Of a DNA stretch of 64,000 nucleotides, positions 35,009 through 57,807 are shown piece by piece. Positions within the stretch are counted from its first letter, which is position 1. Every line of letters starts with the position of its first letter. Both the position numbers and the translations under genes were made by a program. Source of the DNA: Lysobacteraceae bacterium (GTDB taxonomy: Bacteria; Pseudomonadota; Gammaproteobacteria; Xanthomonadales; Xanthomonadaceae); contig SCUI01000010.1 in assembly GCA_004297225.1 (NCBI GenBank), positions 558,001 through 622,000 of the forward strand, given 5' to 3'. The notes below the pieces were generated by a model that was not told where the DNA came from, searched no databases, and saw only the letters and a list, made by a program, of their open reading frames with translations.

Positions 35009-35070
35009 CGTGTGCGTGCGGGCGGTAGCGGTGTCCAGGCGTGGACGTGAAAGCATTGATACAAACAAAA

Positions 35071-35082
35071 CCTAAGCTTAGG
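35071..35082. promoter_or_regulatory. Perfect 12-bp palindrome CCTAAGCTTAGG overlapping the RBS
   Basis: CCTAAGCTTAGGAG immediately upstream of ATG at 35095. Confidence 0.45.
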
Positions 35083-35094
35083 AGTAAAGAACAA

Positions 35095-36384
35095 ATGGCC
35101 CTGAACAAGAAGCTGCTCGCTGGCGCAATCGCCGGCCTGCTGTTCTCGACGTCCGCCAGCGCTGTCGTGCTGGACGGTGTCGCGCCGTACAAGTACGCCC
35201 TCGAGCTGGTCAACGGCACTGACCTGCTGGCTCGCGTTGCCGAGGCGCCGCTGAACTACAACTTCAGCCCGAACGAAGTCCGCTACGGTCGTTTCTCCTG
35301 CAACGGCGCGACCCTGTCGAACATCGCCGTTTCCACCACCTCGCCCGACATCGACCTGGGTGCGGTGAACGGCAACGGCACCAACACCATCTTCTTCTCG
35401 ATGACGGGTGACCCGGCGCTGGTCAACCCGACCGCCGCCGAGACGATGGACATCACCGCGGACGTCGAGCTGCTGAACAAGGGCAGCGTCACCTGCGAAT
35501 TCGCCATCTACGACCTGCCGTCGCAGGCCCAGATGGGCGGTCCGGACGGCCTGGTGATCGACTCGGGCACCGACGGCTACAAGGCCTGGATCACCCGTCC
35601 GTCGGGTTACGTCTTCGCCGGTACCGACGGCGAGGCCGTGGCCGACGTCGAGGATCCGCTGGGCGCGTACTTCGGCTTCGTGGGTACCGGCCAGTTCGGC
35701 GCCCTGCAGTTCGAGGCCGTCCCGGGCGTGTGGGACAAGGACAACGCCGACATCACCCTGGCCGACATCTTCGATGCCGACACCACGGTGACGATCGACG
35801 GCGACTTCACCGCCGCTGCCGACCTGACCTGGAACCTCGTGAGCCCGGATGCCCTGGCTGACGATGCCGCCGTGTACGAGTACACCAGCGCCATCCCGGC
35901 CCTCGGCCTGAACGGCCCGCTGGTGTTCATCGAGACCGGTGCCGACGCGATCATGGAGTCCGAGTACACCGCGACCCTCGACGTGTCGACCAACGTCGGC
36001 TACGAGACCAGCGACCGTACGGACACCGTCGGTGAGATCACCCGCAACGGTACCCAGCTGCAGGCGCCGCTGGTGCAGCTGCCGCAGGGTTGGCTGAGCC
36101 GCATCGCCATCACCAACACCGGTGCCCTGGCGCGTGCGTACTCGCTGGAGCTGATGACGGAAACCGGCCGCACGGGCACCATCTCCCCGTCGACGGGTAC
36201 GGTCCCGGCGAACGGCACGGTCGTGATCGACCTGGCCGACATCGTGACCTTCAGCCAGAACCGCGGCACGATCAACCTGAACGTCGCGGCGCCGAACAAC
36301 CAGATCCAGGGTCTGTACCAGATCGTGAATCCGGTTGCCGGTTCGCTGAGCAACCACGTGATGGTGCGTCCGGGCACCAACTAA
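35095..36384 (+). CDS. Secreted protein of unknown function, paralogue A
   Basis: Signal peptide MALNKKLLAGAIAGLLFSTSASA; strongly biased codon usage; C-terminus near-identical to paralogue B. Confidence 0.85.
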   Translation: MALNKKLLAGAIAGLLFSTSASAVVLDGVAPYKYALELVNGTDLLARVAEAPLNYNFSPNEVRYGRFSCNGATLSNIAVSTTSPDIDLGAVNGNGTNTIFFSMTGDPALVNPTAAETMDITADVELLNKGSVTCEFAIYDLPSQAQMGGPDGLVIDSGTDGYKAWITRPSGYVFAGTDGEAVADVEDPLGAYFGFVGTGQFGALQFEAVPGVWDKDNADITLADIFDADTTVTIDGDFTAAADLTWNLVSPDALADDAAVYEYTSAIPALGLNGPLVFIETGADAIMESEYTATLDVSTNVGYETSDRTDTVGEITRNGTQLQAPLVQLPQGWLSRIAITNTGALARAYSLELMTETGRTGTISPSTGTVPANGTVVIDLADIVTFSQNRGTINLNVAAPNNQIQGLYQIVNPVAGSLSNHVMVRPGTN

Positions 36385-36411
36385 GCCCGAAAGCTCCACA
36401 CGCAGTACCAG

Positions 36412-36441
36412 GGAGGCCCGCTTCGGCGGGCCTCCTTTTTT
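36412..36441 (+). terminator. Rho-independent terminator
   Basis: GGAGGCCCGC-TTCG-GCGGGCCTCC followed by TTTTTT. Confidence 0.92.
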
Positions 36442-36485
36442 TATGCGCCGCATGGCCGGATTTCGATTCGTTCGCGTTTGGCCTT

Positions 36486-36511
36486 CATGATCGTGCGCTA
36501 TCGCGATCATG
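36486..36511. promoter_or_regulatory. Inverted repeat CATGATCG-N10-CGATCATG upstream of paralogue B
   Basis: Read directly. Confidence 0.45.
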
Positions 36512-36536
36512 CCCATCCGGAAGACAGGAGTTACTG

Positions 36537-37847
36537 ATGTCGTTGAAGTACAAATTGCTCGCGAGCACCGTGGCCGGGTTGCTGTTGTCGGCGAACGCCG
36601 GCGCGGTGGTGCTGGGAGTCGATCCGGCGCGCGCCTACGCCGCGGAACTCGAGGACGGCACCACGCTGACCGACCCCGCGGACACCGTGTCGTTCGAGGT
36701 CGGCTACAACTTCAGCGACGGTGAGGTGCGCTATGGACGCTTCGCGTGCACCGACAACCTGACGATGGCCGGCTTGACCGTCTCGACCGCATCGCCCGAC
36801 CTGGCCCTCGGCGCGATCAACGGCCAGGGCACCAGCGCAGTCTTCTTCTCGATGACCGCCGGTGCATCGCCGGGAGCGACCGCCGACGACGTCATCACGG
36901 TCGATGCCACCAACACCCTGGAGGACGGCGGCGACGTCAGCTGCGAGTTCGCCATCTACGACCAGCCTTCGCAGGCGCAGGCGGGAGGTGCCAACGGTCT
37001 CGTCTACACCACCGGCCTGCAGCCGTTCATCGAGCGGGTGCCCGGTTTCGTGTTCGAATTCGAGGCGGGGGATCCGGACCAGGGCGTTGCCGACGTCGAG
37101 GCAGCTCTTGGCTCGTACATGGGCTTCACGCCGATCAACGACTGGGCCAACTTCGCGAACTTCCGCTTCCAGGAAGTTGCCGGCGTGCTCAAGGCCGACG
37201 GAACCCAGGTCACCATCCCGGACATCTTCGGCGGCGATACCGCGATCATCGTCGATGGCGACTTCAGCGCGGCCGACAACATCTGGTTGTGGGACAACCT
37301 CAGTGCCAATTGGTATTGGGACAGTTTCGACGATGACAGTGCGTCGTTCACCGGCGTGACGATCCCGCTCGACGCCTACCTCCAGTACGACGTGGACGAC
37401 GTCGACCCGATCCAGGAAAGCGAGTATTTCGCGACCCTCGAGGCCGACGCGAATCCAGGTTATGTCGTGGCGGACGTGGGCCCGATCCGCATCGGCGAGA
37501 TCGTCCGCAACGGTACCCAGCTGCAGGCGCCGCTCGTGCAGCTGCCGCAGGGCTGGCTGAGCCGCATCGCGATCACGAACACGGGGGCCCTGGCGCGTCC
37601 GTATTCGCTTGAAGTGATGACCGAAACCGGTCGCACCGCCACCGTCTCCCCGTCGACCGGCACGGTGCCCGCAGGTGGCACGGTCGTGATCGACCTGGCC
37701 GACATCGTGACCTTCAGCCACAACCGCGGCACGATCCACCTGAATGTCGCGGCTCCGGACAACCAGATCCAGGGTCTGTACCAGATCGTGAATCCGGTGG
37801 CCGGTTCGCTGAGCAACCACGTGATGGTGCGCCCGGCCACCAACTAA
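36537..37847 (+). CDS. Secreted protein of unknown function, paralogue B
   Basis: Signal peptide MSLKYKLLASTVAGLLLSANAGA; colinear with paralogue A. Confidence 0.85.
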   Translation: MSLKYKLLASTVAGLLLSANAGAVVLGVDPARAYAAELEDGTTLTDPADTVSFEVGYNFSDGEVRYGRFACTDNLTMAGLTVSTASPDLALGAINGQGTSAVFFSMTAGASPGATADDVITVDATNTLEDGGDVSCEFAIYDQPSQAQAGGANGLVYTTGLQPFIERVPGFVFEFEAGDPDQGVADVEAALGSYMGFTPINDWANFANFRFQEVAGVLKADGTQVTIPDIFGGDTAIIVDGDFSAADNIWLWDNLSANWYWDSFDDDSASFTGVTIPLDAYLQYDVDDVDPIQESEYFATLEADANPGYVVADVGPIRIGEIVRNGTQLQAPLVQLPQGWLSRIAITNTGALARPYSLEVMTETGRTATVSPSTGTVPAGGTVVIDLADIVTFSHNRGTIHLNVAAPDNQIQGLYQIVNPVAGSLSNHVMVRPATN

Positions 37848-37924: not shown

Positions 37925-38812
37925 TCAGGGCATCAGCGCGGCGTGGTAGCGCGGCGAGAGCCAACCGGCGTAATCGGGGCGCGTCGCCTCGTTCGCATAG
38001 GGCTTGCCGCGGATCGCTTCGTACTCGGCCGCCATCCGCGCCCAGGGATGTTCCGCGCGCGGCACGTTGGTGGCCACGCCGCCGTGGAACTGGTGGAAGG
38101 TCGCTTCCCCCAGCAGCATCACCGGCACGACGCCCGGAAGCTGGTGCGCGCGATTGAAGAAGTCCAGGTTGACCAGCCCGCCGCCCGCGCTGGCGAAGGC
38201 TTCGTCCATGCCGCCGAGCGCGAGGAAGTCGTCGCGCCGCAATGCAAAGCAGTTGCTCTCCGACAGCTGGCCGAAATACCCCTCGCCGGACGAGTACGCC
38301 AGGCACGAGACCTCGAACAGGCGGTAGCCGTTTTCCTGCCAGGGCACGCGATCCAGCAGCGCATCCTCGACCGACTGGTCGTAGCCTTCGAGCATCGATT
38401 CGTTCTGCGGCTTCGGCCCGAGGTGCATGCCCAGCGTGTACACGAACGGATGCCGGTGCGATCGCAGCGCGGCGAGCGCATGGTGCAACACGCCCGGCGA
38501 GAGCATGCGCGCGCCGTCGATGCAGACCATCACGTATTCGCCATGCGCGTGGCCGACGGCGCGGTTGATCGCCGCGCACGGCGACGGATTGCCGGCCGGC
38601 GCCTGCAGCAGGCGGATGTCCGCGGACACGGCGTCGACGTCGTCGCGGCGCAAGGGCGCGCTCGAACCGTTGTCCACGGCGATGACTTCCACGTTGGCCG
38701 CATCGATGCCGCGCTGGTAGGGCACGGCGAGCGTGCGCAGGGTGCGCGCGGCCTCGCGGCGCATCTCGTGGAAGACGGCGATGACGCTCAGGCGCGGGCC
38801 GGGTGCGGTCAT
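37925..38812 (-). CDS. Glycosyltransferase family 2-like protein
   Basis: LSVIAVFHEMRREAARTLRTL...VIAVDNGSS...GGMDEAF. Confidence 0.75.
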   Translation of the reverse strand: MTAPGPRLSVIAVFHEMRREAARTLRTLAVPYQRGIDAANVEVIAVDNGSSAPLRRDDVDAVSADIRLLQAPAGNPSPCAAINRAVGHAHGEYVMVCIDGARMLSPGVLHHALAALRSHRHPFVYTLGMHLGPKPQNESMLEGYDQSVEDALLDRVPWQENGYRLFEVSCLAYSSGEGYFGQLSESNCFALRRDDFLALGGMDEAFASAGGGLVNLDFFNRAHQLPGVVPVMLLGEATFHQFHGGVATNVPRAEHPWARMAAEYEAIRGKPYANEATRPDYAGWLSPRYHAALMP

Positions 38813-39558
38813 GCGCGACCCGCCGCTTCCAGCAGCGCGGTATGCATGGCCGCATGGGCATCGGGGAGCGGGGCGTCGCCGGGCGCCGTGCCGGAGCGCA
38901 GTTCCTCCTCGAAGAACTCGTCCGTCGCCCCGCCGCTTCCGCGCAGCCCGAGGGCGCCCGACAGCGCATCGACAGCGGCAACATAGGCCATCGGCGTCGT
39001 ATCGAAATCCACGAGCGGGAACGGTGCCAGCGCGTGCAGCGCCAGCAGGCGCTCGTTGTAGGCGAGCCACAGGTCCAGCGCCGCCCGGGCCGGCATCGAC
39101 GGATCACGCGCGGTCAGCGATGCGACGACCCGCGCGGGGTGGCGGAAGGTGCCGACGAAACGCACGGCGCCCAGGCCTTCGCGCCAGAACGGCAGCGTGA
39201 GCAGGGTGCGCGGATCCTTGAATCCCCATGGCGCGCCGTCGCTGCCGCCCGCCAGCGAGGCCACGATCGCATCGCGTCGTGCCGCCGCCGCCGCGTCCCA
39301 GCGCAGCTGGCGGGGCGGGCGATCCCAGGCGCCGCCGCTGGCGGCCAGCACCGCGTCATTGAGGTCCATGACCTGCTGGTTCTCGCGGTTGCCCTTGCGG
39401 TTGTAGGGGCGCGATTCGTAGACCTCGCCGAGGAACAGCCCGCGTTGCTGCAGGCTGCCGGCCAGGCAGCTGGTGCCGCTGCGGTGCATGCCCAGGATCA
39501 GGATCGGTGGCGAGGGCACGGCGGCTCCGGCGGCGGCAAGGCTGTCGAGGATAGCGAC
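38809..39558 (-). CDS. Sulfotransferase-like protein
   Basis: ILILGMHRSGTSCLAGSLQQRGLFLGE; GFKDPRTLL; FRHPARVVASL. Confidence 0.75.
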   Translation of the reverse strand, partial: VAILDSLAAAGAAVPSPPILILGMHRSGTSCLAGSLQQRGLFLGEVYESRPYNRKGNRENQQVMDLNDAVLAASGGAWDRPPRQLRWDAAAAARRDAIVASLAGGSDGAPWGFKDPRTLLTLPFWREGLGAVRFVGTFRHPARVVASLTARDPSMPARAALDLWLAYNERLLALHALAPFPLVDFDTTPMAYVAAVDALSGALGLRGSGGATDEFFEEELRSGTAPGDAPLPDAHAAMHTALLEAAGRA

Positions 39559-39578
39559 TCGCGCCGTATAGTGCGCCC

Positions 39579-40706
39579 ATGCCGACCCGCCTCGCGCACC
39601 TGTTCCTGGGCAGGCCCCGCACGCGCCAGCAGCACTACGACGCACTCGACGGCCTGCGTGGGCTGGCCGTGCTGATCGTGATCGCCTCGCACCTGTCCCT
39701 GCTCGGTTTCGGGCTGGTCCCGGGCTTGCCGGTCGGCGGCATCGGCAAGAGCGGCGTGTACCTGTTCTTCGTGCTCAGTGCATTCCTGCTGACCCGCCTG
39801 TTGCTGGAACGCACGCCGGCCCGGTTCGCGGATGGCCGGCTATGGGTCGGATATGCAATGCGCCGCGTGCTTCGCATCTGGCCGCTGTACCTGGTGGTGC
39901 TGGCGCTGGCATGGGCGATCACGCGCGCGGGAGCGCCGTGGTGGCACTACCAGCTCGACGGCGCGGCAGTGTTGCGGCACCTCGCCTTGCGGGAAGGCTA
40001 CAGCGTGCTCTGGAGCATCCCGGTCGAGTTCAAGTTCTACCTGTGGTTGCCGCTGATGGCGCTGGCGCTGGCGTGGATGGCTGCGCGGCGGTGGCCGCTG
40101 CCCGCGCAGGCGCTGGTCTGGCTGGCCGCGCTGGCCCTGGCGACGTGGGCCTGGCCGCCCTCGCAGACAGGCATCAACGACGTCCGCCTGGGGCCCTACC
40201 TGCCGCTGTTCCTGGCCGGCGGCGCCGCCGCCGCGATCGACCTGCGCATCGGCCACGGCGGCGCGTCGCGGGGGTGGGGCATCGCCGGGCTGCTGGCCTG
40301 CGCCGCCTTCGTGCTGACGTTGCCGGAAACCTGGGCGGCGCTGTCGGGGACACCCGTGGACCACAAGCTCACCCATACATGGTTCGTGTTCTTCGGCGTG
40401 ACGTGGGCGACGCTGCTGTTGGCGGTGCTGCATGGGCCGCGCTGGTTGCGCGCGCCGTTCGCCTGGGCGCCGATGCGCCTGCTGGGCGTGGTGAGCTTCA
40501 GTGCCTACCTGTGGCACATGCCCGTGCTTTACGGCATGGCGGCCATGGGCGCCGGGGACTGGCCGCTCGCGGGGTGGTGGGTGTTCGCCGCGACGCTGTT
40601 GTTGTCCATGGCATCGTTCCTGCTGGTGGAGCGGCCATGGCGCGATGTCCGGCTACCGGCCGATGCTAAAATCAGCCGGGTTTTTCCATGGTGGAGCCGC
40701 ACGTGA
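39579..40706 (+). CDS. Acyltransferase family protein (OafA-like integral membrane)
   Basis: YDALDGLRGLAVLIVIASHLSLLGFG...GKSGVYLFFVLSAFLLTRLLL; SFSAYLWHMPV. Confidence 0.88.
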   Translation: MPTRLAHLFLGRPRTRQQHYDALDGLRGLAVLIVIASHLSLLGFGLVPGLPVGGIGKSGVYLFFVLSAFLLTRLLLERTPARFADGRLWVGYAMRRVLRIWPLYLVVLALAWAITRAGAPWWHYQLDGAAVLRHLALREGYSVLWSIPVEFKFYLWLPLMALALAWMAARRWPLPAQALVWLAALALATWAWPPSQTGINDVRLGPYLPLFLAGGAAAAIDLRIGHGGASRGWGIAGLLACAAFVLTLPETWAALSGTPVDHKLTHTWFVFFGVTWATLLLAVLHGPRWLRAPFAWAPMRLLGVVSFSAYLWHMPVLYGMAAMGAGDWPLAGWWVFAATLLLSMASFLLVERPWRDVRLPADAKISRVFPWWSRT

Positions 40707-41881
40707 CCAAGAACGACGACCGCGACTCGCATCGCCCCGCCCTCGGCACCCTCGCGATCCACGCGGGGCAATCGCCCGACCCGAGCACCGGCGCGGTGAT
40801 GACGCCGATCTACGCGACCTCCACCTACGTGCAGTCCAGCCCGGGCGTGCACCAGGGCTTCGAATACTCGCGCAGCCACAACCCGACGCGCTTCGCCTAC
40901 GAGCGCTGCGTGGCGGCACTGGAGGGCGGCACGCGCGGCTTCGCCTTCGCGTCGGGCCTGGCCGCCACCTCGACGATCCTCGAGCTGCTGGACAGCGGCA
41001 GCCACGTGATCGCGATGGACGACGTCTACGGCGGCACCTATCGCCTGTTCGAGCGGGTCCGCCGGCGCAGCGCCGGGCTGGACTTCAGCTGGGTCGACCT
41101 CGGCGACAGCGCCGCGTTCGAGGCCGCGATCCGCCCCGAGACGCGCATGGTCTGGATCGAGACGCCGACCAACCCGCTGCTGAAGCTCGTCGAGATCGCC
41201 CGCGTGGCGGAGATCGCGCGCAAGCGCGGCCTCATCGTCGTCGCCGACAACACCTTCTGCTCGCCGATGGTGCAGCGCCCGCTCGAACACGGCGCGCACA
41301 TCGTCATGCATTCAGCCACCAAGTACCTCAATGGCCACTCCGACATCGTCGGCGGCATGGCGGTGGTGGGCGACGACGCGGCGCTCGCCGAGCAGATGGC
41401 CTTCCTGCAGAACTCGGTCGGCGCGGTGCAGGGGCCGTTCGACAGCTTCCTGGCCCTGCGCGGCCTGAAGACGCTGCATTTGCGCATGCGTGCGCATTGC
41501 GACAACGCGCTGGCGCTGGCGACCAGGCTCGAGGGCCACCCGAAGCTGGAGCGCGTGGTCTACCCGGGCCTGCCCTCGCATCCGCAGCACGCGCTGGCGG
41601 GACGGCAGATGGACGGCTACGGCGGCATGGTCTCCATCTTCCTCAAGGGCGGTTTCGAGGCGGCGCAGCGATTCTGCGAGCGCACGCGGCTGTTCGCGCT
41701 GGCCGAGTCGCTGGGCGGCGTCGAGAGCCTGGTCAACCACCCCGCGGTCATGACCCACGCATCGGTGCCGCCCGAGCGGCGCGCGGAGCTCGGGATCGGC
41801 GACAACCTGGTGCGGCTGAGTGTCGGCGTGGAGGACATCGCCGACCTCACCGACGACGTCCTTTCCGCGCTGGGGGAGTAA
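40688..41881 (+). CDS. metB: Cystathionine gamma-lyase/synthase (PLP-dependent)
   Basis: TLAIHAGQSPDPSTGAVMTPIYATSTYVQ; SATKYLNGHSDIVGG. Confidence 0.93.
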   Translation: MVEPHVTKNDDRDSHRPALGTLAIHAGQSPDPSTGAVMTPIYATSTYVQSSPGVHQGFEYSRSHNPTRFAYERCVAALEGGTRGFAFASGLAATSTILELLDSGSHVIAMDDVYGGTYRLFERVRRRSAGLDFSWVDLGDSAAFEAAIRPETRMVWIETPTNPLLKLVEIARVAEIARKRGLIVVADNTFCSPMVQRPLEHGAHIVMHSATKYLNGHSDIVGGMAVVGDDAALAEQMAFLQNSVGAVQGPFDSFLALRGLKTLHLRMRAHCDNALALATRLEGHPKLERVVYPGLPSHPQHALAGRQMDGYGGMVSIFLKGGFEAAQRFCERTRLFALAESLGGVESLVNHPAVMTHASVPPERRAELGIGDNLVRLSVGVEDIADLTDDVLSALGE

Positions 41882-41888
41882 CCGCGGC

Positions 41889-42698
41889 ATGGACCGCCGA
41901 TCCGGGGGGCCCTTGTCCGCGCTCGGCCGACACCGTTCGCTGACCTGGGAGCTGGCGCGGCGCGACGTGCTCGGCCGCTATCGCGGCGCGAGCTTCGGCC
42001 TCCTGTGGTCGCTGATCAGCCCGTTCCTCCTGCTGTGCGTCTACACGTTCGCCTTCGGCACCGTGATGGGCAGCCGTTGGCCGCAGATCGCAAGCGGGGA
42101 GACGCACTTCGCGATCGTGCTGTTCGTGGGGCTCATCGTCCACGGCTTCCTCGCCGAATGCCTGGGGCGCGGGCCGGAGCTCATCGTCTCCAACCCCAAC
42201 TTCGTGAAGAAGGTGATCTTCCCGCTGGAGATCCTGCCCTGGCCGATGGTGCTGTCGGCGTTGTTCCATGCCTGCATGAACGTGGTCGTGTTCCTCCTGT
42301 TGCGGCTCGCGCTCGACGGCGAAATCGCATGGACGTTCGTGCTGCTTCCGCTGGTGATGCTGCCGCTGGTGGTGCTCGGGCTGGGCGTGTCCTGGTTCCT
42401 CGCGGCGACGGCGGTCTACGTCCGCGACATCCGCCAGGTGACCGGTCCGCTGAGCATGGCGTTGCTGTTCCTGTCCTCGGCGATGATGCCGGTCGAGGTG
42501 ATCCCGCCCGCCTACCGCTGGGTGTTCCAGATCAACCCGCTCACCTTCATCATCGACCAGGCCCGCGAGGTCCTGCTCTGGGGGAACATGCCCGACTGGG
42601 CCGGGCTGGGGGTGTACCTGGCGGGCGCGACGGTGGTGATGTTCGCCGGCTGGGCCTGGTTCCGCCTCACCCGGCCGGGGTTCGCCGATGTCCTCTGA
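41889..42698 (+). CDS. wzm: ABC-2 polysaccharide export permease (Wzm)
   Basis: ELARRDVLGRYRGASFGLLWSLISPFLLLCVYTFAFG; six-TM pattern; next to wzt. Confidence 0.9.
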   Translation: MDRRSGGPLSALGRHRSLTWELARRDVLGRYRGASFGLLWSLISPFLLLCVYTFAFGTVMGSRWPQIASGETHFAIVLFVGLIVHGFLAECLGRGPELIVSNPNFVKKVIFPLEILPWPMVLSALFHACMNVVVFLLLRLALDGEIAWTFVLLPLVMLPLVVLGLGVSWFLAATAVYVRDIRQVTGPLSMALLFLSSAMMPVEVIPPAYRWVFQINPLTFIIDQAREVLLWGNMPDWAGLGVYLAGATVVMFAGWAWFRLTRPGFADVL

Positions 42699-44076
42699 AC
42701 TGGCCATCCGCGCGCGGGGCCTGTCGAAGGTCTATCCGGTGTACGCCAAGCCGCACCATCGCCTGATGCAGGCACTGGACCCGCGGCGCGGGCGCCACTG
42801 GCACAACGAATTCCACGCCCTGCAACCGCTGGACCTGGACATCCGCCGTGGCGAGACGGTGGGCATCGTCGGCCGCAACGGCTCCGGGAAGTCCACGCTG
42901 CTGCAACTGGTGTGCGGCACGCTCGCGCCGACCACCGGCAGCGTCGAGGTCGCCGGCCGGATCGCCGCGCTGCTGGAACTCGGCGCCGGCTTCAACCCGG
43001 ATTTCACCGGCCGCGAGAATGCGTACCTCAACGGCTCCGTCCTCGGCCTCTCGCGCGGCGAACTGGACGACTGCTTCGACGCGATCGCGGCGTTCGCCGA
43101 CATCGGCGAATTCATGGACCAGCCGGTCAAGAACTACTCGAGCGGCATGTACGTGCGCCTGGCGTTCGCGGTCGCGATCAACGTCAACCCCGACGTGCTG
43201 ATCGTGGACGAAGCGCTGTCCGTGGGCGACGAAGCCTTCCAGCGCAAGTGTTTCGCCCGCATCGAGCGGATCCGCGAGGACGGCGCGACCGTGCTGTTCG
43301 TCTCGCATGCCGCGGGTACGGTGGTGGAACTGTGCGACCGCGCGGTGCTGCTCGACCACGGCGAGATGCTCGGTTCGGGGCGCCCGCGCGGGATCATCGC
43401 GCGCTACCAGAAGCTCCTGTACGCGCCGGCCGACCGGGCCGCCCGCGTGCGCGAGGAGATTCGTGGCCACTACGCCTCCGGCGCCGCCGACGAGGAAGCA
43501 GACGCGGATGCCGCACCGGCCATCGAGGCCGGTGGCGCGACCGGGCCCGTGGCGCGGCACGCGGCGCCGGCGCGGCCGGGCGTGGCAAGGCACGAGCGCG
43601 CGCGCTGGGATCCGGGGATGGTACCGTCGAGCACCGTGGCCTACGAGAACCTGGGCGCCAGCATCGTCGACCCGCACATCGAGACGCCGGAAGGCGAGCG
43701 CGTCAACGTCCTCGTTGCCGGGGACGAATACGTCTACAGTTACGACGTGGAGTTCACCCGGACGCTGGCGCGCGTCCGCTACGGGATGATGATGCGTTCG
43801 ACCATCGGCATCGACATTGGCGGCTGCGCGAGCGCGATCCCGACCGAGGCCATTCCCGTGGTCGAGCGCGGCACCGTGATCAAGGCGCGCTTCCGCTTCC
43901 GCTGCATCCTCGCGCCGGGCGTGTATTTCGCCAACGCCGGCGTGCTCGCGTCGCTGGGCGAAGGCGAGGAATTCGTCGACCGGCGCATCGACGCGGCGAT
44001 GTTCCGGGTGATGCCGCAGTGGGGGCGCCTGGCCACCGGCCTGGTGGACATGGACGTGGCGCCGGAGGCCGGGTGA
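42688..44076 (+). CDS. wzt: ABC polysaccharide export ATPase with C-terminal Wzt-like domain
   Basis: GIVGRNGSGKSTLLQLVCG; YSSGMYVRLAFAVAINVNPDVLIVDEALSVGD; about 180-aa C-terminal domain. Confidence 0.9.
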   Translation: MSSELAIRARGLSKVYPVYAKPHHRLMQALDPRRGRHWHNEFHALQPLDLDIRRGETVGIVGRNGSGKSTLLQLVCGTLAPTTGSVEVAGRIAALLELGAGFNPDFTGRENAYLNGSVLGLSRGELDDCFDAIAAFADIGEFMDQPVKNYSSGMYVRLAFAVAINVNPDVLIVDEALSVGDEAFQRKCFARIERIREDGATVLFVSHAAGTVVELCDRAVLLDHGEMLGSGRPRGIIARYQKLLYAPADRAARVREEIRGHYASGAADEEADADAAPAIEAGGATGPVARHAAPARPGVARHERARWDPGMVPSSTVAYENLGASIVDPHIETPEGERVNVLVAGDEYVYSYDVEFTRTLARVRYGMMMRSTIGIDIGGCASAIPTEAIPVVERGTVIKARFRFRCILAPGVYFANAGVLASLGEGEEFVDRRIDAAMFRVMPQWGRLATGLVDMDVAPEAG

Positions 44077-47000
44077 GCAGCGGCCTGCTCGTGCTGGGCA
44101 TGCACCGCAGCGGTACCTCGGCGCTGGCCCGGGTGTTGCAGCTCTGCGGCGCCGACATCGGCAGCCGCATCCTCGGCGAAAGCGCGGGCAACGAGGGCGG
44201 GCACTGGGAAGATGCCTTCGCGGTGGAGCTGCACGAGCGCCTGCTCGCCTCGCGCGGAACGCGCTGGGACGAGGCGCTGGGCCTGCCGGCGGACTGGCAT
44301 GCGGACGCGGCGGCCGGCCAGGCGCGGCGCGACATCGGCGCCTATCTGTCGGGCAACCGCGCGCGGCATCCGCTGTGGGCGGTCAAGGATCCGCGCCTGT
44401 CGCTGTTCGCCGACCTGTGGATCGACGCCGCGCGCGACGAGGGGCAGTCGCTGGGTGCAGTGCTGGTGTTGCGGCATCCGCTGGAAGTGGCGAAATCGCT
44501 GGCAGCGCGCGATGGCATCGCGCCGGCCCGCGGGCTGGTGCTGTGGCTGGAATACACGCTGGCCGCGGTCGCCGCGCTGGAGCGTGTGCCGAACACCCTG
44601 CTCACCTACGGCCAGCTGCTCGAGGACTGGCGCGCCTGCGTCGAGCGGATCCGGCAGCTGCCCGGCGGCGCGCACTTGCGGGTCGACGACGCGGCGGCCC
44701 GCCAGGTCGAGGCGTTCCTCGACGGCAAGCTGCGCCACCACGCGGAAGACGACCTGGCTGGCCTGCCGCAGGTGGTGCGCGAAGTCTGGACCGAGCTGTC
44801 CGGCCTTGCCGCCGGGGGTGGCCTGCCGCCGGGCGCGGTCGATCGCCTCGCAGGCCGCATCGCCCCGGTGCGTGAGCTGGTGCATCCACTGCTGGGGGAA
44901 ATGCGGGTCACCCAGCGCAAGTTGTGGGAGCGCGTCGGCCGCGCCGAAGCGCCGGTCGCGACGATTCCCGCAGAGCTCAAGGCATTGGCCGAGCGCGTCG
45001 AGCTGGGCCGCTCCGACCTCGTCTCGGCGATTTCAGACGACTTGCGGCACATGCAGGACGTGGCGGCGCAGGCACTGCAGGCGGCAGCCGCGCGCGAACA
45101 GGAAGCCGCGCTGGCGCGGCAGCTGGCGCCGCGGATGCAGCAGCTCGAAGCCGGGCTCGCGCAGCTCTCGCAGGTGCAGGAGCAACTGCAGCAGTCGACC
45201 GAGCGCTGCGCGGAAGCCCATGTCGAACTGGCCGCGCTTCGCGCCGAAGCGGTCGAAGCCGCGCGACAGCTCGACGCCAGTCGCTCACGGGTGCTGCAAC
45301 TGGAGCACGAAGCCACCGCGCTGCGGGCGGATTCGCAGATGCTCGAGCAGGTCAAGCGCTCGCGATCCTGGCGGCTGACGCGGCCCTTGCGCGTCGCGTT
45401 CCGCTTGCTGACGGGCCGCGGCGACCACGAATTCGCCGTCGCGCGGCAATCGCTGCGCACCCTGGTCGCGCGCACGCCCTTGCTGCCGCGACGCGCCAAG
45501 GCCAGCCTCATCGCGCGCACCCTGCGCGGCGCACCTGCGGGCCACCCCGCGCAACTGCCGGGTGCCGGGATGGCGGCGCTGGTGGCGCTCGCGCCGGCGC
45601 AAGCCGGCCTTGCCGACGTGTTCGACTGGTCGGTGATCGACTGGCATTTCCGCATCCAGCGGCCGCAGCACCTGGCGCGCGCGCTGGCCGGGCGCGGCCA
45701 CCGCGTGTTCTACGTTTCCAACAACTTCGTGGATGCGCCCGAACCCGGCTTCCGGATCGAACCGCTGGACGATTGCGGGCGGCTTTTCCAGGTGAACCTG
45801 CACCTGTCCGGTGCGCCCTCGATCTACGTCGGCCTGCCGGACGATGCCCAGGTCGCCGCTCTGCAGCGCAGCCTGGGCAAGCTGCTCGGCTGGACCGGCA
45901 CCCAGGCCTCGCTGTCGATCGTGCAGCATCCGTACTGGTCGCGGCTGGCCCGCGTGGTGCCGAACGCGCGCGTGGTCTACGACTGCATGGACCACCACGG
46001 CGGCTTCGAGAACAACGCGCCGGCCGTGCTCGAGGCGGAACGCAGCCTGCTGGCCGACGCCGACCTGGTGACGGTGACCTCCTCGTGGCTGGAGCGCGAG
46101 CTCGCCCCGCGCGCGCGCGATGTCGCGGTGATTCGCAACGCGGGCGAATACGAGTTCTTCAGCCAGGCGCCGGGCAAGGTGTTCCGCGACGAGCAGGGGC
46201 GCAAGGTCATCGGCTACTTCGGCGCGATTGCCGAGTGGTTCGACCTCGACCTGGTCCGCCGCGTGGCGCAGGAGAACCCCGGCGCGCTGGTGGTGCTGGT
46301 CGGCAATGACACCGTCGACGCCAGGAGCCGCCTCGCCGGCCTGGACAATGTGCGGCTGGTCGGCGAGCGGCCCTATGCCGACCTGCCCTACTGGCTGCAC
46401 GGCTTCGACGTCGCCTTGCTGCCGTTCCGCATCATCGACCTGACGATCGCGACCAACCCGGTCAAGGTCTACGAATACCTCGCCGCGGGCAAGCCGGTGG
46501 TGGCCGTGGACCTGCCGGAAATGGCGCAGTTCGACGGCCTGGTGCACGTCGCCAGGGATGCGGACGACTTCTCCGCTGCGGTGGCGCGGGTGCTCGCCGA
46601 AGGCGACACGGCGCAGGCACGCGCCGCCCGCCAGGCCTTCGCCGCGGGCCAGACCTGGGACCACCGCGCGCGCGCGCTGGACGAAGCGATCGCCGGGATT
46701 CGCGAACCGCTGGTCAGCGTCGTGGTGCTTGCCTACAACAACCTCGCATTCACCCAGAACTGCCTTTTCAGCATCGAGCAGTACAGCGACTACGCCAACC
46801 TCGAGGTGATCGTCGTCGACAACGCCTCGACCGACGGTTCGCCGGAATGGCTGCGGCAATGGGCCGCCGAGCCGTCCGCCGCGGGCCATCGCCGCCGCCT
46901 GGTCCTCAACGGGCAGAACCTGGGTTTCGCCGCGGGCAACAACGCCGGCCTCGCGGCGGCGCAGGGCGACTACCTCGTCCTGCTCAACAACGACACCTAC

Positions 47001-47486
47001 GTCACCTTCGGCTGGGTCCGCGGGCTGTGCGCGCACCTCCGGCGCGACCCGGCGCTTGGACTGGTCGGGCCGGTGACCAACAACATCGGCAACGAGGCGA
47101 AGCTCGACCTCCATTACCAGGACATCGTCGACATGCACCGGCTCGCCGGCGAGTACACCCGCGCGCATCCCGGCCAGTTGTTCCGGATGCCCACCGTGGC
47201 GTTCTTCTGCGCCGCGATGCCGCGCGCCGTGTATGCGGCGGTCGGCGGCCTGGACGAAGCCTTCGGCATCGGCTTCTTCGAGGACGACGACTACTGCCGG
47301 CGCGTGGCCGATGCCGGCTGGCATGTCGGCTGCGCCGACGACGTGTTCGTGCACCACCATCTGTCTGCGAGCTTCGACAAGCTCAAGACCGAGGCCAGGC
47401 AGGCGCTGTTCGAGAAGAACAAGGCGATCTACGAGGCCAAGTGGGGCCCCTGGGTGCCGCACGTCTACCGGAACGACCCCAGGTGA
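44073..47486 (+). CDS. 1137-aa multidomain protein: sulfotransferase-like, coiled coil, GT4-like, GT2
   Basis: LLVLGMHRSGTSALARVLQ; Q/E/A-rich helix then SRSWRLTRPLR; DWHFRIQRPQHLARALAGRGHRVFYVS; VSVVVLAYNNLAFTQNCLFSIEQYSDYANLEVIVVDNASTDGS. Confidence 0.85.
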   Translation: MSSGLLVLGMHRSGTSALARVLQLCGADIGSRILGESAGNEGGHWEDAFAVELHERLLASRGTRWDEALGLPADWHADAAAGQARRDIGAYLSGNRARHPLWAVKDPRLSLFADLWIDAARDEGQSLGAVLVLRHPLEVAKSLAARDGIAPARGLVLWLEYTLAAVAALERVPNTLLTYGQLLEDWRACVERIRQLPGGAHLRVDDAAARQVEAFLDGKLRHHAEDDLAGLPQVVREVWTELSGLAAGGGLPPGAVDRLAGRIAPVRELVHPLLGEMRVTQRKLWERVGRAEAPVATIPAELKALAERVELGRSDLVSAISDDLRHMQDVAAQALQAAAAREQEAALARQLAPRMQQLEAGLAQLSQVQEQLQQSTERCAEAHVELAALRAEAVEAARQLDASRSRVLQLEHEATALRADSQMLEQVKRSRSWRLTRPLRVAFRLLTGRGDHEFAVARQSLRTLVARTPLLPRRAKASLIARTLRGAPAGHPAQLPGAGMAALVALAPAQAGLADVFDWSVIDWHFRIQRPQHLARALAGRGHRVFYVSNNFVDAPEPGFRIEPLDDCGRLFQVNLHLSGAPSIYVGLPDDAQVAALQRSLGKLLGWTGTQASLSIVQHPYWSRLARVVPNARVVYDCMDHHGGFENNAPAVLEAERSLLADADLVTVTSSWLERELAPRARDVAVIRNAGEYEFFSQAPGKVFRDEQGRKVIGYFGAIAEWFDLDLVRRVAQENPGALVVLVGNDTVDARSRLAGLDNVRLVGERPYADLPYWLHGFDVALLPFRIIDLTIATNPVKVYEYLAAGKPVVAVDLPEMAQFDGLVHVARDADDFSAAVARVLAEGDTAQARAARQAFAAGQTWDHRARALDEAIAGIREPLVSVVVLAYNNLAFTQNCLFSIEQYSDYANLEVIVVDNASTDGSPEWLRQWAAEPSAAGHRRRLVLNGQNLGFAAGNNAGLAAAQGDYLVLLNNDTYVTFGWVRGLCAHLRRDPALGLVGPVTNNIGNEAKLDLHYQDIVDMHRLAGEYTRAHPGQLFRMPTVAFFCAAMPRAVYAAVGGLDEAFGIGFFEDDDYCRRVADAGWHVGCADDVFVHHHLSASFDKLKTEARQALFEKNKAIYEAKWGPWVPHVYRNDPR

Positions 47487-48967
47487 CGGGTGCCGTCCGC
47501 GGACCACGCGAACGCCAGTGGCCCGCGATCCTCCTGGCAACCATCGTCGCGTCCGCGGCGTTCGCCAACGTCGCCGCCTACATCGCGCATGCGGGCAACC
47601 CGCTGGTGATGTCCGACGCCTGGTACTTCATAGACGCCTTCCTGCGCAAGGCGGTGGAGCAGGGCGCCTCGGTCGCGGATTTCTTCGTCAAGCGCTCGGC
47701 CACGGACCACGCGCAGCCATTGATCAAGGCGTTGATGCTGGCGAACGCGGAGTGGTGGGGGCTCGATTTCGTCTACGAGGCCCTGGCGGGGCTCGCGTTC
47801 GCGCTCGCGACCTTCGTCGTGCTGGCCGCCACCACCTGGCGGGGCGCGCGGGAACGGCAACCGGCGTGGCTGCACGGCCTGCTCCTCGGCACCCTGGCCG
47901 CCTGCCTGGTCACGCTCAACAGCGGCATGGTCTTCAGCTGGTCGCTGGTGACGCTGACCTATCTCTGCTATTTCCTCGCGGCCTGCGCAGGCGCCTGCGC
48001 CTGGCGCGCGCTCGCCGGCGGCGGACGCGCCGCGCTGGCGGCGGTGTCGCTGGTCGTCGCGTTCACGATGGACGACGTCGGCCTCCTGATCGCGCTCGCC
48101 CTGGTGCTCTCGGTCGCCTTCGCCGCGGCCAGGCGCCGGGACTTCCGCGCGGCCTGGCCGGTGATCGCGATCATCGTGGCTAGCGAGCTGTGCTACCTCG
48201 TCGCCAGCCGCCTATGGCTGCATTCCGGAGCGGAGGCCGTGACCGGCGCGGTCGGTGCATCGGCGTTCGCGCGGGTCTGGGAACTGCGCGGCAGCGCCGT
48301 GGAGATCGCCCGCGTCGTGCTCGCCACCTCGCTCGCGCACGTGAACCAGATCGTCCACTACTTCCCGGACGACGTCCGCCGCGTGCAGTCGGTGCTGGCC
48401 GGCGTGGCGCTGCTCGCCCACGCCTGGTTCTGGTGGCGCGCCTGGCGCGTGCAATGGAACGCCGCCGTGTTCCACGCCGTGGCGCTGATGCTGCTGGCCT
48501 ACGGGATGGTCGCCGGCATCGTCCATGCCCGCGTGCCCGAGTTCGGCGTCGCCTACCTCAACGAGCCCCGCTACGTGGTGATGTACCTGCTCGGGGATGT
48601 CGCACTGGTGCTGATGCTGCTCGGCCACCCGCTGCGGATGGCCCACCGGGCGGCGCGTGTCGGCGAGGCCGTGGTGCTGGTTGTGCTGCTCGCGTTGCAG
48701 GTCGCGCTGACGCGCTATTCCTGGGACGAGGCGCGCTACCTGGGGATCTACTACCACCAGATGGCGCGGCAGATGCTGGTCCTGGGCGAGGGCGGCATGC
48801 CACCGAACTGCCTGCCGATCCTGTCCGCGTGCGGAATGCCGCCCGCGCAACGCGAAGCGGCATTCGAGTTCCTGCAGCGCCACCAGCTCAACCTCTACTC
48901 GCCGGCGTTCGTCGCCCGTTACCGGCTCGAGGCGGTGGTGCAGCCTGCGGCCGAACCAGCGAATTAG
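47483..48967 (+). CDS. Polytopic membrane protein, possible GT-C-type glycosyltransferase
   Basis: Many TM segments; large first periplasmic loop MSDAWYFIDAFLRKAVEQGASVADFFVKRSATDHAQP. Confidence 0.65.
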   Translation: MTGAVRGPRERQWPAILLATIVASAAFANVAAYIAHAGNPLVMSDAWYFIDAFLRKAVEQGASVADFFVKRSATDHAQPLIKALMLANAEWWGLDFVYEALAGLAFALATFVVLAATTWRGARERQPAWLHGLLLGTLAACLVTLNSGMVFSWSLVTLTYLCYFLAACAGACAWRALAGGGRAALAAVSLVVAFTMDDVGLLIALALVLSVAFAAARRRDFRAAWPVIAIIVASELCYLVASRLWLHSGAEAVTGAVGASAFARVWELRGSAVEIARVVLATSLAHVNQIVHYFPDDVRRVQSVLAGVALLAHAWFWWRAWRVQWNAAVFHAVALMLLAYGMVAGIVHARVPEFGVAYLNEPRYVVMYLLGDVALVLMLLGHPLRMAHRAARVGEAVVLVVLLALQVALTRYSWDEARYLGIYYHQMARQMLVLGEGGMPPNCLPILSACGMPPAQREAAFEFLQRHQLNLYSPAFVARYRLEAVVQPAAEPAN

Positions 48968-50961: not shown

Positions 50962-52095
50962 TCAGCGCTTGAGCAGGTCGTTGTAGGCGAGCAGGCACAA
51001 CCGCCCCTCGTCGTCGTGGAGCGTAGCCACTGCCGTCATGTGGCCGCGCAGCGTGGTCGACCCCGGGAACCGGACGCGCAGCACGTGCCCGCGGTCGGGG
51101 TACACCGGCGCCAGGAACGCGAGTTCCGAGCGCAGGAAAAGCGTGCCAAGGCCCGGCACCCGGGTGCCGAAGACGCGCGACAACTCGCTGCCGGCAAGCA
51201 TGCCGTGCGAGATGCGCGAGGCGAACCCCGCCTCGCGCGCGGCCTCGTCGTCGAGGTGGACGCTGTTGGTGTCGCCGGTGGCGGTGGCGAACGCGCGCAC
51301 CTGCTCGCTGGTGAACACTACCGTCTCCTCGATCGCAGGCTCGCCGGCGGACAGCAGCGCGTTGACGTGCCAGGTGTCGTAGGCCTGGACCAGGTTGAAG
51401 CCTTCGCGGCTCCAGACCTTCTGCACGGCGAGGTTCCACACCTGCGTGGAGACTTTCATGCGGCGGTAGCCCAGCGCACGGAACCTGGCCTGCGTGTAGC
51501 GGATCAGGTCGCCGTACAGGCCGCCGCCGGCGTGTTCCGGGTGCACGCCGTACAGCACGCCCTCGCAGTTTGCGGAGGCATGGTCGTGGCTGCAGCAGGC
51601 GAAGGCGACGATCTCGCCATCGCGACGCGCGACCCAGGTCGTGCGGTCGCTGCCGCCGCGAAGGTAACCGGCGGCCCATTCCGCGTAACCCGCCAGGATC
51701 GCCTCGCGATCGAGGATCGGGTTGGCGTGGTAGTGGCTCCTGTAGTCGGCGAAGGTCGTGGCGACCAGCGCCTGCAGCTCCAACGCGTCTCCCGCCGCCG
51801 CCTCGCTGAATTCGAGGTCGTCGTTGCGCAGCGGCTTCGGCTCATGGCGGTCGAGCGCGACGTCGTAATACACGAGCGTGTCCGCATGCAGCGGATGCAG
51901 GCCATAGCGGCCCAGCTGTGCGATCGCGGCGCCCTGGCCGGCGTCGGTGCGCACGATCGCCACGTCCACGGCGCTGCCCGCCAGTTCGAGGAACAGCTCC
52001 CTGGCGTCGACGGTTTGCAGCGTGCCGCGGAACACCCGCAGGCCGAAGCGGCTCGAGTCCGGACCCGATTCCGCCAGCAGGCCGGCGGCCGTCAT
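50962..52095 (-). CDS. GNAT N-acyltransferase (WecD-like) fused to MaoC-like hydratase domain
   Basis: N-terminal GVLYGVHPEHAGGGLYGDLIRYTQARFRALGYRRMKVSTQ; C-terminal TGDTNSVHLDDEAAREAGFASRISHGMLAGSELSRVFG. Confidence 0.82.
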   Translation of the reverse strand: MTAAGLLAESGPDSSRFGLRVFRGTLQTVDARELFLELAGSAVDVAIVRTDAGQGAAIAQLGRYGLHPLHADTLVYYDVALDRHEPKPLRNDDLEFSEAAAGDALELQALVATTFADYRSHYHANPILDREAILAGYAEWAAGYLRGGSDRTTWVARRDGEIVAFACCSHDHASANCEGVLYGVHPEHAGGGLYGDLIRYTQARFRALGYRRMKVSTQVWNLAVQKVWSREGFNLVQAYDTWHVNALLSAGEPAIEETVVFTSEQVRAFATATGDTNSVHLDDEAAREAGFASRISHGMLAGSELSRVFGTRVPGLGTLFLRSELAFLAPVYPDRGHVLRVRFPGSTTLRGHMTAVATLHDDEGRLCLLAYNDLLKR

Positions 52096-53066: not shown

Positions 53067-54196
53067 CGGCAGGTGTGCTCGCGGATCCTTTCGGCGATGC
53101 GTGTCGCGGCGCGGCCGTCGCCGTAGGGATTGTGGGCCCTGGCCATCGACTGGTGGAAGCCTTCGTCGTCGAGCAGGCGCCCGGCGTCGCGCAGGATGGC
53201 GCCGGCATCGGTCCCGACCAGGCGTACCGTCCCGGCTTCCACCGCCTCCGGCCGTTCGGTGGTCGCGCGCATCACCAGCACCGGCTTGCCCAGGGACGGC
53301 GCTTCCTCCTGTACCCCGCCCGAGTCGGTGAGGATGAAATGCGAGCGCATCATCAGGTAGACGAAGGGCAGGTAGTCCTGCGGCGGCAGCAGGTGGACGC
53401 CGGGCAAGCCGCCGAGGATCCGGTGGACCGGCTCCTGCACGTTGGGGTTGAGGTGGACGGGGTAGACCACCTGGACATCCCCGCGTGCCGCCAGGTCGCG
53501 CAGCGCGGAGCAGATCTGGTCGAAGCCGTCGCCGAAATTCTCGCGACGGTGCCCGGTCACCAGGACCGTGCGCTTGCCCGGATCGAGGAACGGGAACCTG
53601 CCTTCCAGTTCGCCGCGCAGCGCGGCGTCGCCTTCGATGCGCCCGGCGACCTCGAGCAGGGCGTCGATCACCGTGTTGCCGGTGACGTGGATCGCGCCGG
53701 GGGCGACGCCTTCGGCCAGCAGGTTGTCGCGCGCGCGCCCGGTGGGGGCGAAGTGCAGGGCCGCGAGTGGCGCCACCAGCCTCCGGTTGGCCTCCTCGGG
53801 CCACGGCGCGTAAAGGTTGCCGGTGCGCAGGCCGGCTTCGACGTGCCCGACCGGCACCCGGGCGTAGTACGCAGCCAGCGCGGTGGCGAGGGTGGTGCTG
53901 GTGTCGCCGTGCACGAGCACCAGGTCCGGACGGCGCCGTGCGATCACGCCGCTCATGCCGGAGAGGATGCGGCCGAACAGGTCGGGAAGCGCCTGTCCCG
54001 GGGCCATCAGGTCGAGGTCCTCGTCGGGCGCGATGCCGAACAACCGCAGCACCTGGTCCAGCATCTGCCGGTGCTGCGCGGTCACCGCGACCTGCACTTC
54101 GATCCCGGGCGTGACCGCCAGCGCGCCCACCACCGGGGCCATCTTGATCGCTTCCGGGCGGGTCCCAATGGCAACCATCACCCGAGCTTGGGTCAA
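53063..54196 (-). CDS. wecB: UDP-N-acetylglucosamine 2-epimerase (non-hydrolysing)
   Basis: [71 protein letters not shown]; start uncertain (TTG 54196 or ATG 54178). Confidence 0.92.
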
Positions 54197-57739: not shown

Positions 57740-57807
57740 GGCCGGTCGGTGGCTAGAATGACGTCCAACCCATCACCAACCGGCAGCCACGAGAGGATCC
57801 CCGCGCA

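What the first reader, a model, noticed from the sequence alone, without database searches (positions are those of the whole stretch)
41889..47486. Sulfotransferase-like / coiled-coil / GT4 / GT2 fusion directly downstream of Wzm-Wzt: possible one-polypeptide cap, ruler and polymerase
Seen: GTG at 44073 overlaps the wzt stop. The 1137-aa product starts with a P-loop-like LGMHRSGTS sulfotransferase motif (about residues 1-240), then a Q/E/A/L-rich probable coiled coil (about 295-427) ending in SRSWRLTRPLR, then a GT4-like domain and a GT2 domain. Established: in ABC-dependent O-antigens such as E. coli O9a, WbdD (kinase/methyltransferase plus coiled coil) caps and measures the chain, WbdA (several GT domains) polymerises it, and the Wzt C-terminal domain recognises the cap. 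Inference: here a sulfotransferase-like cap, a coiled-coil spacer and two GT domains may sit in one protein next to a Wzt that has its own C-terminal domain. An alternative is that the N-terminal domain only modifies an internal sugar.
Basis: partly seen in the sequence, partly recalled or inferred. Interest (0 to 1): 0.85.

Follow-up and report, generated by a model that had tools for sequence, protein, structure and literature searches.

The report
Sulfotransferase-capped O-antigen polymerase beside its exporter
One protein in this bacterium's O-antigen gene cluster joins a sulfotransferase, a long coiled-coil rod and two sugar-adding enzymes, and comparison with hundreds of genomes suggests it ends each sugar chain with a sulfate that the neighbouring export pump is built to recognise, a chain-ending chemistry not described before as far as I could find.

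Summary
A 1137-aa ORF (44073-47486) overlaps the wzt stop by 4 nt and encodes a PAPS-type sulfotransferase domain (ST), a continuous helix/coiled coil (303-429, AlphaFold pLDDT 89 for residues 1-450), GT4 and GT2. The locus is the known xanthomonad metB-etfA LPS locus. The one-polypeptide cap-ruler-polymerase layout has precedents (WbbB, WsaE, Klebsiella O7 ORF6); the sulfotransferase as the cap module appears new.

Comparative evidence favours a terminal cap. In the family, the gene overlapping wzt carries an interchangeable N-terminal module: ST (18 loci), methyltransferase (29) or pyruvyltransferase (3). Wzt C-terminal domains (CBMs) beside ST form one clade (18/18). The same GT4-GT2 polymerase occurs with ST, pyruvyltransferase or methyltransferase, each with a different CBM. 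A CBM profile used blind on about 770 genomes found 13 scorable strong hits outside the family: 8 have a sulfotransferase in the cluster by profile, of four subfamilies, 3 more by motif only, 2 none; 0/32 methyl/pyruvyl loci have one within 30 kb.

Not shown: enzymatic sulfation, its position, or the ruler function. ST fusions also occur without such a Wzt. Verdict: new variant of a known kind.

The parts
41889..42698 (+). wzm, ABC-2 permease (ATG at 41889; an in-frame GTG at 41820 is possible)
   Evidence: PF01061 2.2e-23
42688..44076 (+). wzt, ATPase with C-terminal Wzt_C/CBM domain (about residues 310-462)
   Evidence: PF00005 and PF14524 7.6e-24; AlphaFold of the CBM pLDDT 89, best PDB match the E. 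coli O9a Wzt CBM 2r5o
44073..47486 (+). ST - coiled coil - GT4 - GT2 fusion (1137 aa)
44073..44822 (+). sulfotransferase domain (residues 1-250): 5'-PSB-like G9-M-H-R-S-G-T-S16, 3'-PB-like R134...S142, invariant E46 and K105-D-P-R108
44979..45359 (+). continuous long helix / coiled coil (residues 303-429)
45360..45413 (+). basic helix SRSWRLTRPLRVAFRLL (residues 430-447), candidate membrane-proximal element
   Evidence: the SWRxTxPLR motif recurs at the end of the coil in relatives
45600..46682 (+). GT4-type glycosyltransferase domain (about residues 510-870)
   Evidence: TuaH-like match
46701..47483 (+). GT2 glycosyltransferase domain (about residues 877-1137)
   Evidence: PF00535 1.8e-26
47483..48967 (+). 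494-aa membrane protein with about 11 hydrophobic segments, GTG overlapping the fusion's stop; end of the overlapping gene run
   Evidence: no Pfam match
40688..41881 (+). metB-like gene, left border of the LPS locus
   Evidence: PF01053 1.1e-146; metB-etfA locus in PMC2238763
54193..55883 (-). etfA/etfB-like pair, right border of the LPS locus
   Evidence: ORFs, identified by eye; locus convention from PMC2238763
57808..60623 (+). cysD and cysNC (ATP sulfurylase / APS kinase), the genome's PAPS source
   Evidence: PF01583 1.1e-68; the only APS kinase hit in the genome

Best explanation
The protein is a chain terminator, spacer and polymerase for an ABC-transporter-dependent O-antigen. The GT4 and GT2 domains extend the lipid-linked chain at the membrane. 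The 127-residue helix, probably an oligomeric coiled coil, holds the sulfotransferase domain at a distance. When the non-reducing end is long enough to reach that domain, it is sulfated from PAPS and growth stops. The Wzt CBM, of a class specific to sulfotransferase-bearing clusters, recognises the sulfated end and releases it to Wzm-Wzt. Shown by computation: domain identities, PAPS-site residues, long helix, overlapping genes, module swap next to wzt, and CBM-sulfotransferase coupling. Inferred: sulfation of the terminal sugar, CBM recognition of it, ruler function, and that GT4+GT2 suffice for the repeat unit.
For: (1) The slot overlapping wzt holds ST, methyltransferase or pyruvyltransferase modules, usually with a coiled coil and GT domains, in 50 family loci. 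(2) Family CBM test: of 60 Wzt loci, all 12 with CBM score >=109 have ST next (11 directly, 1 after a metB-like gene); 0 of 48 with score <=42 or none have ST within 1.5 kb. ST-linked CBMs are one clade, 99 SH-aLRT. (3) Same polymerase, different cap and CBM: L129 (ST, polymerase 73% identical), L138 (pyruvyltransferase, 73%), L154 and L136 (methyltransferase, 63% and 56%). (4) L131 has an ST-clade NBD but a methyltransferase cap and the matching methyltransferase CBM clade. (5) Blind CBM scan outside the family: 8 of 13 strong hits have a sulfotransferase by profile (P0001-type, Sulfotransfer_1, _2, _3), 3 by motif only; the nearest Sulfotransfer_2/3 hit on the same contig in 32 methyl/pyruvyl genomes is over 30 kb from wzt. 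(6) Stand-alone ST+coil proteins of about 430-440 aa sit in the same slot, including in the same genus (L035, L036, L037), like WbdD. (7) Known coiled-coil terminators have this layout (PMC11231755).
Against: The N-terminal domain itself matches no Pfam model. The nucleotide-binding domain of Wzt tracks cap type nearly as well as the CBM (11 against 10 changes), so much of the coupling could be operon inheritance. ST-coil-GT fusions also occur without an ST-class Wzt CBM (L171, L176, L177; three congeners with an ABC protein lacking Wzt_C; most of the 80 named loci). Two of 13 blind hits (G801, G720) show no sulfotransferase, and the blind test with profile hits only is borderline (8/13 against 3/14, p=0.054; with motif-only hits 11/13, p=0.002). 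No sulfate was found in the A. salmonicida O-antigen, whose wzt is followed by a sulfotransferase-domain gene (PMC4483657), although one sulfate per chain could be missed.
Confidence: 0.68

Rival explanations
1. The sulfotransferase decorates internal sugars of the chain (every repeat or a fraction), and chain length and export are set otherwise; the Wzt CBM simply binds a sulfated polymer.
For: Internally sulfated capsules with cluster-encoded sulfotransferases and PAPS genes are known (PMC11641403). ST-coil-GT fusions exist in clusters without a CBM-bearing Wzt next to them.
Against: The ST occupies exactly the slot and the position (N-terminal to a coiled coil) of methyl and pyruvyl modules in sister loci, and a matching CBM class accompanies it.
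Confidence: 0.17
2. The ST-CBM coupling is hitchhiking: wzm, wzt and the adjacent gene were inherited together, with no functional match between CBM and sulfate.
For: NBD and CBM trees need similar numbers of cap changes, 11 and 10.
Against: Sulfotransferases of at least four subfamilies accompany the same CBM class; wzt-linked STs are not one clade in the ST tree (deep support weak); L131 shows CBM and cap switching together against an ST-type NBD.
Confidence: 0.1
3. The N-terminal domain has the sulfotransferase fold but is inactive or transfers another group, serving as a scaffold or length stop without sulfation.
For: No Pfam hit for P0001 itself; structural E-values are modest and partly shared with other P-loop kinases; no activity data.
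Against: Both PAPS-binding motifs are invariant across 52 diverse relatives, the top structural hits are PAPS-dependent sulfotransferases, and the genome has APS kinase.
Confidence: 0.05

Closest known systems
WbbB (Klebsiella O12 / Raoultella terrigena)
   Same: One polypeptide with an N-terminal terminating module, a coiled-coil spacer and two C-terminal polymerising GTs, next to a Wzt with a cap-reading CBM (PMC11231755)
   Different: Its cap is a Kdo residue added by a glycosyltransferase; here the module is of the sulfotransferase superfamily
ORF6 of Klebsiella pneumoniae O7
   Same: N-terminal cap enzyme, coiled coil, two C-terminal GT modules in one protein (PMC11231755)
   Different: Methyltransferase-kinase cap; GT2-GT2 instead of GT4-GT2
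WbdD (E. coli O9a / Klebsiella O3)
   Same: Cap enzyme plus coiled-coil ruler; the stand-alone ST+coil relatives (L035, L036, L037) resemble it in layout
   Different: WbdD is kinase/methyltransferase and recruits a separate polymerase, WbdA
WsaE (Geobacillus stearothermophilus NRS 2004/3a)
   Same: Trifunctional protein overlapping wzt: N-terminal capping methyltransferase plus two GT domains (PMC2943079)
   Different: 2-O-methyl cap; S-layer glycan; [quoted passage not shown]
wbsalmo ORF19 (Aeromonas salmonicida A450)
   Same: Sulfotransferase-domain gene listed directly after wzt in an ABC-dependent O-antigen cluster (PMC4483657)
   Different: 216-aa separate gene, function left open, no sulfate detected; the authors proposed no capping role

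Membership tests
Coiled-coil chain terminators of ABC-dependent O-antigens (WbdD/WbbB/O7-ORF6 type) | Encoded with wzm-wzt | tested here: met
   4-nt overlap with wzt; same slot in many relatives
Coiled-coil chain terminators of ABC-dependent O-antigens (WbdD/WbbB/O7-ORF6 type) | Extended coiled coil separating terminator from polymerase or membrane region | tested here: met
   helix 303-429; COILS-type 0.99
Coiled-coil chain terminators of ABC-dependent O-antigens (WbdD/WbbB/O7-ORF6 type) | Wzt carries a C-terminal cap-binding module | tested here: met
   PF14524; fold nearest the O9a CBM 2r5o
Coiled-coil chain terminators of ABC-dependent O-antigens (WbdD/WbbB/O7-ORF6 type) | CBM specificity matches the cap enzyme | tested here: inconclusive
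   Strong co-occurrence inside and outside the family, but no binding data and NBD tracks cap nearly as well
Coiled-coil chain terminators of ABC-dependent O-antigens (WbdD/WbbB/O7-ORF6 type) | N-terminal enzyme modifies the non-reducing end and stops growth; coil length sets chain length | not testable with these tools
   Needs biochemistry and LPS gels
WbdD proper (kinase/methyltransferase) | Kinase and/or methyltransferase catalytic domain | tested here: not met
   No such domain in P0001
PAPS-dependent sulfotransferases (Sulfotransfer_3 and related Pfam families) | 5'-PSB and 3'-PB PAPS motifs | tested here: met
   R12-S-G-T-S16 and R134...S142 invariant or nearly so in 52 sequences
PAPS-dependent sulfotransferases (Sulfotransfer_3 and related Pfam families) | Profile match of the protein itself | tested here: not met
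   P0001 has no Pfam sulfotransferase hit at E<=0.1; 30/52 relatives do
PAPS-dependent sulfotransferases (Sulfotransfer_3 and related Pfam families) | Sulfotransferase fold | tested here: met
   AlphaFold plus Foldseek: TPST and CurM sulfotransferases on top, E 2e-4 to 5e-4
PAPS-dependent sulfotransferases (Sulfotransfer_3 and related Pfam families) | Sulfate transfer activity | not testable with these tools
   No assay

The most novel reading that the evidence does not exclude
Sulfate is a widespread but unrecognised terminal cap of ABC-exported O-antigens: sulfotransferases of several unrelated subfamilies were recruited to the slot beside wzt in different proteobacterial classes and are read by one class of Wzt CBM, so cap chemistry can be predicted from the CBM sequence.
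Probability: 0.5. Interest if true: 0.8.

Novelty: new variant of a known kind. Interest (0 to 1): 0.68.

Why it matters
Known caps in this export pathway are methyl, phosphomethyl and Kdo (PMC9445017, PMC11231755). A sulfate cap would add a new chemistry, explain orphan sulfotransferase genes next to wzt such as wbsalmo ORF19, and make the rule that the CBM reads the cap testable by prediction. The window also gives a compact single protein in which cap, spacer and polymerase can be cut apart, and sister loci supply the same polymerase with other caps.

Tried and rejected
(a) cysD-cysNC lies 10 kb downstream, which looked like dedicated PAPS supply, but cysNC sits near the locus in genomes without the ST slot too (G175 pyruvyl cap, G006), so it is synteny and not evidence. 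(b) I expected the CBM to track the cap much better than the NBD; overall it does not (10 against 11 changes); only L131 separates them. (c) Wzt-linked STs are not a single clade; deep nodes are weakly supported, so I do not count exact gains. (d) Sulfotransferase genes in L199, L202 and L218 were first seen by motif; hhalign to the ST alignment (L199, L202) and Pfam did not confirm them, so they are counted apart. (e) The COILS-type score uses a matrix reimplemented from memory; I rely on the AlphaFold helix and the periodicity test alongside it. (f) Conserved basic CBM residues (R370, R432 of Wzt) were seen, but an arginine is also present at the R370 position in the Aquifex methyl-cap CBM, so no sulfate-site claim is made. 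(g) Literature searches found no paper proposing a sulfotransferase terminator; the library is open-access only.
Full report
Observation. The 1137-aa frame at 44073-47486 begins with a GTG that overlaps the wzt stop as GTGA, with GGAGG upstream. The next gene, a 494-aa membrane protein, starts with a GTG that overlaps the fusion's own stop, so wzm, wzt, the fusion and the membrane protein form one overlapping run. Pfam gives GT4 (712-842) and GT2 (882-1055). The N-terminal domain has no direct Pfam hit, but 30 of 52 aligned relatives match Sulfotransfer_3 and the PAPS motifs R12-S-G-T-S16 and R134...S142 are invariant or nearly so in all 52. AlphaFold of residues 1-450 (mean pLDDT 89.1) shows a compact domain, then a continuous helix 303-429 and a second helix 431-447. 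Foldseek ranks tyrosylprotein sulfotransferases and the CurM and olefin-synthase sulfotransferase domains on top, with E-values of 2e-4 to 5e-4. The helix has heptad-like periodicity (3.48, p=0.0005 against shuffles) and a COILS-type probability of 0.99 at 355-428.

Setting. wzm follows a metB-like gene (40688-41881), and etfA/etfB-like genes lie at 54193-55883; metB-etfA is the known variable LPS locus of xanthomonads (PMC2238763). Between them on the minus strand are a DegT-family aminotransferase, a GNAT-MaoC fusion, a GT2 and a UDP-GlcNAc 2-epimerase, which fits nucleotide-sugar supply. The genome's only APS kinase (cysNC, 58722-60623) lies in the window, but that position also occurs in genomes whose slot holds another module (G175, G006) and is not taken as evidence.

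The architecture recurs. In relatives the ST-coil unit follows wzm-wzt as a free protein of about 430-440 aa (L035 of the same genus, L036, L037), fused to two GT2 domains (L023) or to an RgpF domain (L026). The exact ST-coil-GT4-GT2 order occurs in Arenimonas donghaensis (L042), a Thermomonas MAG (L041) and, split over two contig ends, in the congener G004. Of 80 named loci of the ST family, about 17 have the ST gene at or close behind a full-length Wzt, all within Lysobacterales or unclassified proteobacterial MAGs; most of the others do not, so the ST family has further settings.

The slot is a module slot. I fetched 60 Wzt loci of the family and classified the gene that follows. Together with the six seed loci, 50 have a recognisable module there: ST in 18, methyltransferases of several types in 29, polysaccharide pyruvyltransferase (PF04230) in 3. 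All 14 methyl- or pyruvyltransferase slot proteins checked have a predicted coiled coil, and many have GT domains behind it. This is the anatomy described for known chain terminators, where the terminating enzyme sits at the far end of a coiled coil from the polymerase (PMC11231755).

The Wzt C-terminal domain goes with the module. A CBM profile from the six seed Wzts scores 109 or more in 12 of the 60 fetched loci, and all 12 have ST next (11 directly, L129 after a metB-like gene); the 48 with 42 bits or less have none within 1.5 kb, although three (L171, L176, L177) have an ST fusion 2.6-2.8 kb on. ST-linked CBMs form one clade (18/18, SH-aLRT 99). The ATPase domain tracks cap type almost as well (11 against 10 changes), so linkage explains part of this. 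Two observations go beyond linkage. L131 has an ATPase domain inside the ST clade but a methyltransferase module and the CBM of that methyltransferase class. And the GT4-GT2 polymerase is shared across modules: it is 73% identical in L129 (ST) and L138 (pyruvyltransferase), 63% in L154 and 56% in L136 (methyltransferases), while the CBM falls from 41% identity in L129 to weak local matches in the others.

Blind test. I then searched the ST-class CBM profile (A4) in 369 genomes of the class and 399 of the phylum and looked at what lies in the cluster. Strong hits (98 bits or more) outside the family could be scored in 13 loci; G670 ends at a contig edge. Eight have a sulfotransferase by profile: P0001-type in G507, G632, G719, G581 and, divergent 3 kb upstream, G604; Sulfotransfer_2 in G335; a distinct Sulfotransfer_3 in G273; Sulfotransfer_1 in G890. 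Three more (G241, G300, G587) have sulfotransferase-like P-loop motifs only, unconfirmed by Pfam or hhalign; two of these form a family, one member of which (L202) ends in a coil and SRSWRLTKPLR. Two have none: G801, an isolated wzt, and G720, cut by the contig start. Among 14 weak hits, three have a sulfotransferase near. Profile-only counts give p=0.054, with motif hits p=0.002; the loci are not phylogenetically independent. As a control, in the 32 family genomes with methyl or pyruvyl modules the nearest Sulfotransfer_2 or _3 hit on the wzt contig is more than 30 kb away. The recurrence of unrelated sulfotransferase subfamilies beside one CBM class is the main reason to prefer recognition of a sulfated end over shared ancestry. 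The window's CBM model is closest to the O9a CBM 2r5o, whose natural cap is an anionic methylphosphate (established knowledge).

Mechanism. The best reading is that GT4 and GT2 build the chain, the coil spaces the ST domain from them, the ST domain sulfates the non-reducing end once it can reach, and the Wzt CBM selects sulfated chains. The domain facts and the coupling are computed; sulfation, its position, the ruler function and CBM recognition are inferred. Internal sulfation remains the chief rival, because cluster-encoded sulfotransferases can act on repeat units (PMC11641403) and because ST-coil-GT proteins exist without an ST-class Wzt, including three congeners whose neighbouring ABC protein lacks Wzt_C (Pfam-checked in one of the three, L027).

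What is known and what is new. One-polypeptide terminator-polymerases are known: WbbB (Kdo), Klebsiella O7 ORF6 (methyl-phosphate) and WsaE (methyl) (PMC11231755, PMC2943079). Reported caps are methyl, (methyl)phosphate and Kdo (PMC9445017). A sulfotransferase-domain gene next to wzt was noted in Aeromonas salmonicida and left unexplained (PMC4483657). I found no paper proposing a sulfotransferase as the terminator, in an open-access library only. I file the protein as working like this terminator class, with the enzymatic defining features untested, and as a new variant by its cap module.

Noticed in passing
window 38809-39645 (-): A second, unfused sulfotransferase (Sulfotransfer_3, 1e-7; LGMHRSGTS motif) overlapping a GT2-like gene (about 37925-38803, -) just outside the metB border; distant from the fusion's ST in the tree.
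   Followed up: partly
L138, L141, L157: Polysaccharide pyruvyltransferase-coiled coil proteins (two of the three fused to GT domains) occupy the gene slot overlapping wzt, with their own CBM clade (100 SH-aLRT): a candidate pyruvate-type terminator class.
   Followed up: partly
window 47483-48967 (+): 494-aa protein with about 11 hydrophobic segments and no Pfam match, translationally coupled to the fusion; possible GT-C, ligase or modifying enzyme.
   Followed up: no
window 50965-52095 (-): GNAT acetyltransferase fused to a MaoC-like dehydratase domain inside the LPS locus, between a DegT aminotransferase and a GT2.
   Followed up: no
window 55961-60623 (+): CitMHS/Na_sulph_symp permease with TrkA_C domains, then cysD and cysNC: a sulfate uptake and activation block beside the LPS locus, probably general synteny.
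   Followed up: yes
window 35041-37847 (+): Two adjacent paralogous secreted-protein genes sharing a near-identical C-terminal region (about 100 aa).
   Followed up: no
L025, L027, L028 (congeners): In three congeners an ST-coil-GT2 fusion, a second ST gene and an ABC pair lie together; the ATPase checked by Pfam (L027) lacks Wzt_C: an ST fusion that cannot rely on a CBM-bearing Wzt.
   Followed up: partly
L202:3477-4700 (+), L218:1912-3441 (+): Proteins with a FR[AS]GST P-loop motif and a coiled-coil-like tail directly after wzt, no Pfam family (L202 ends in SRSWRLTKPLR): possibly an undescribed sulfotransferase-like terminator family.
   Followed up: partly
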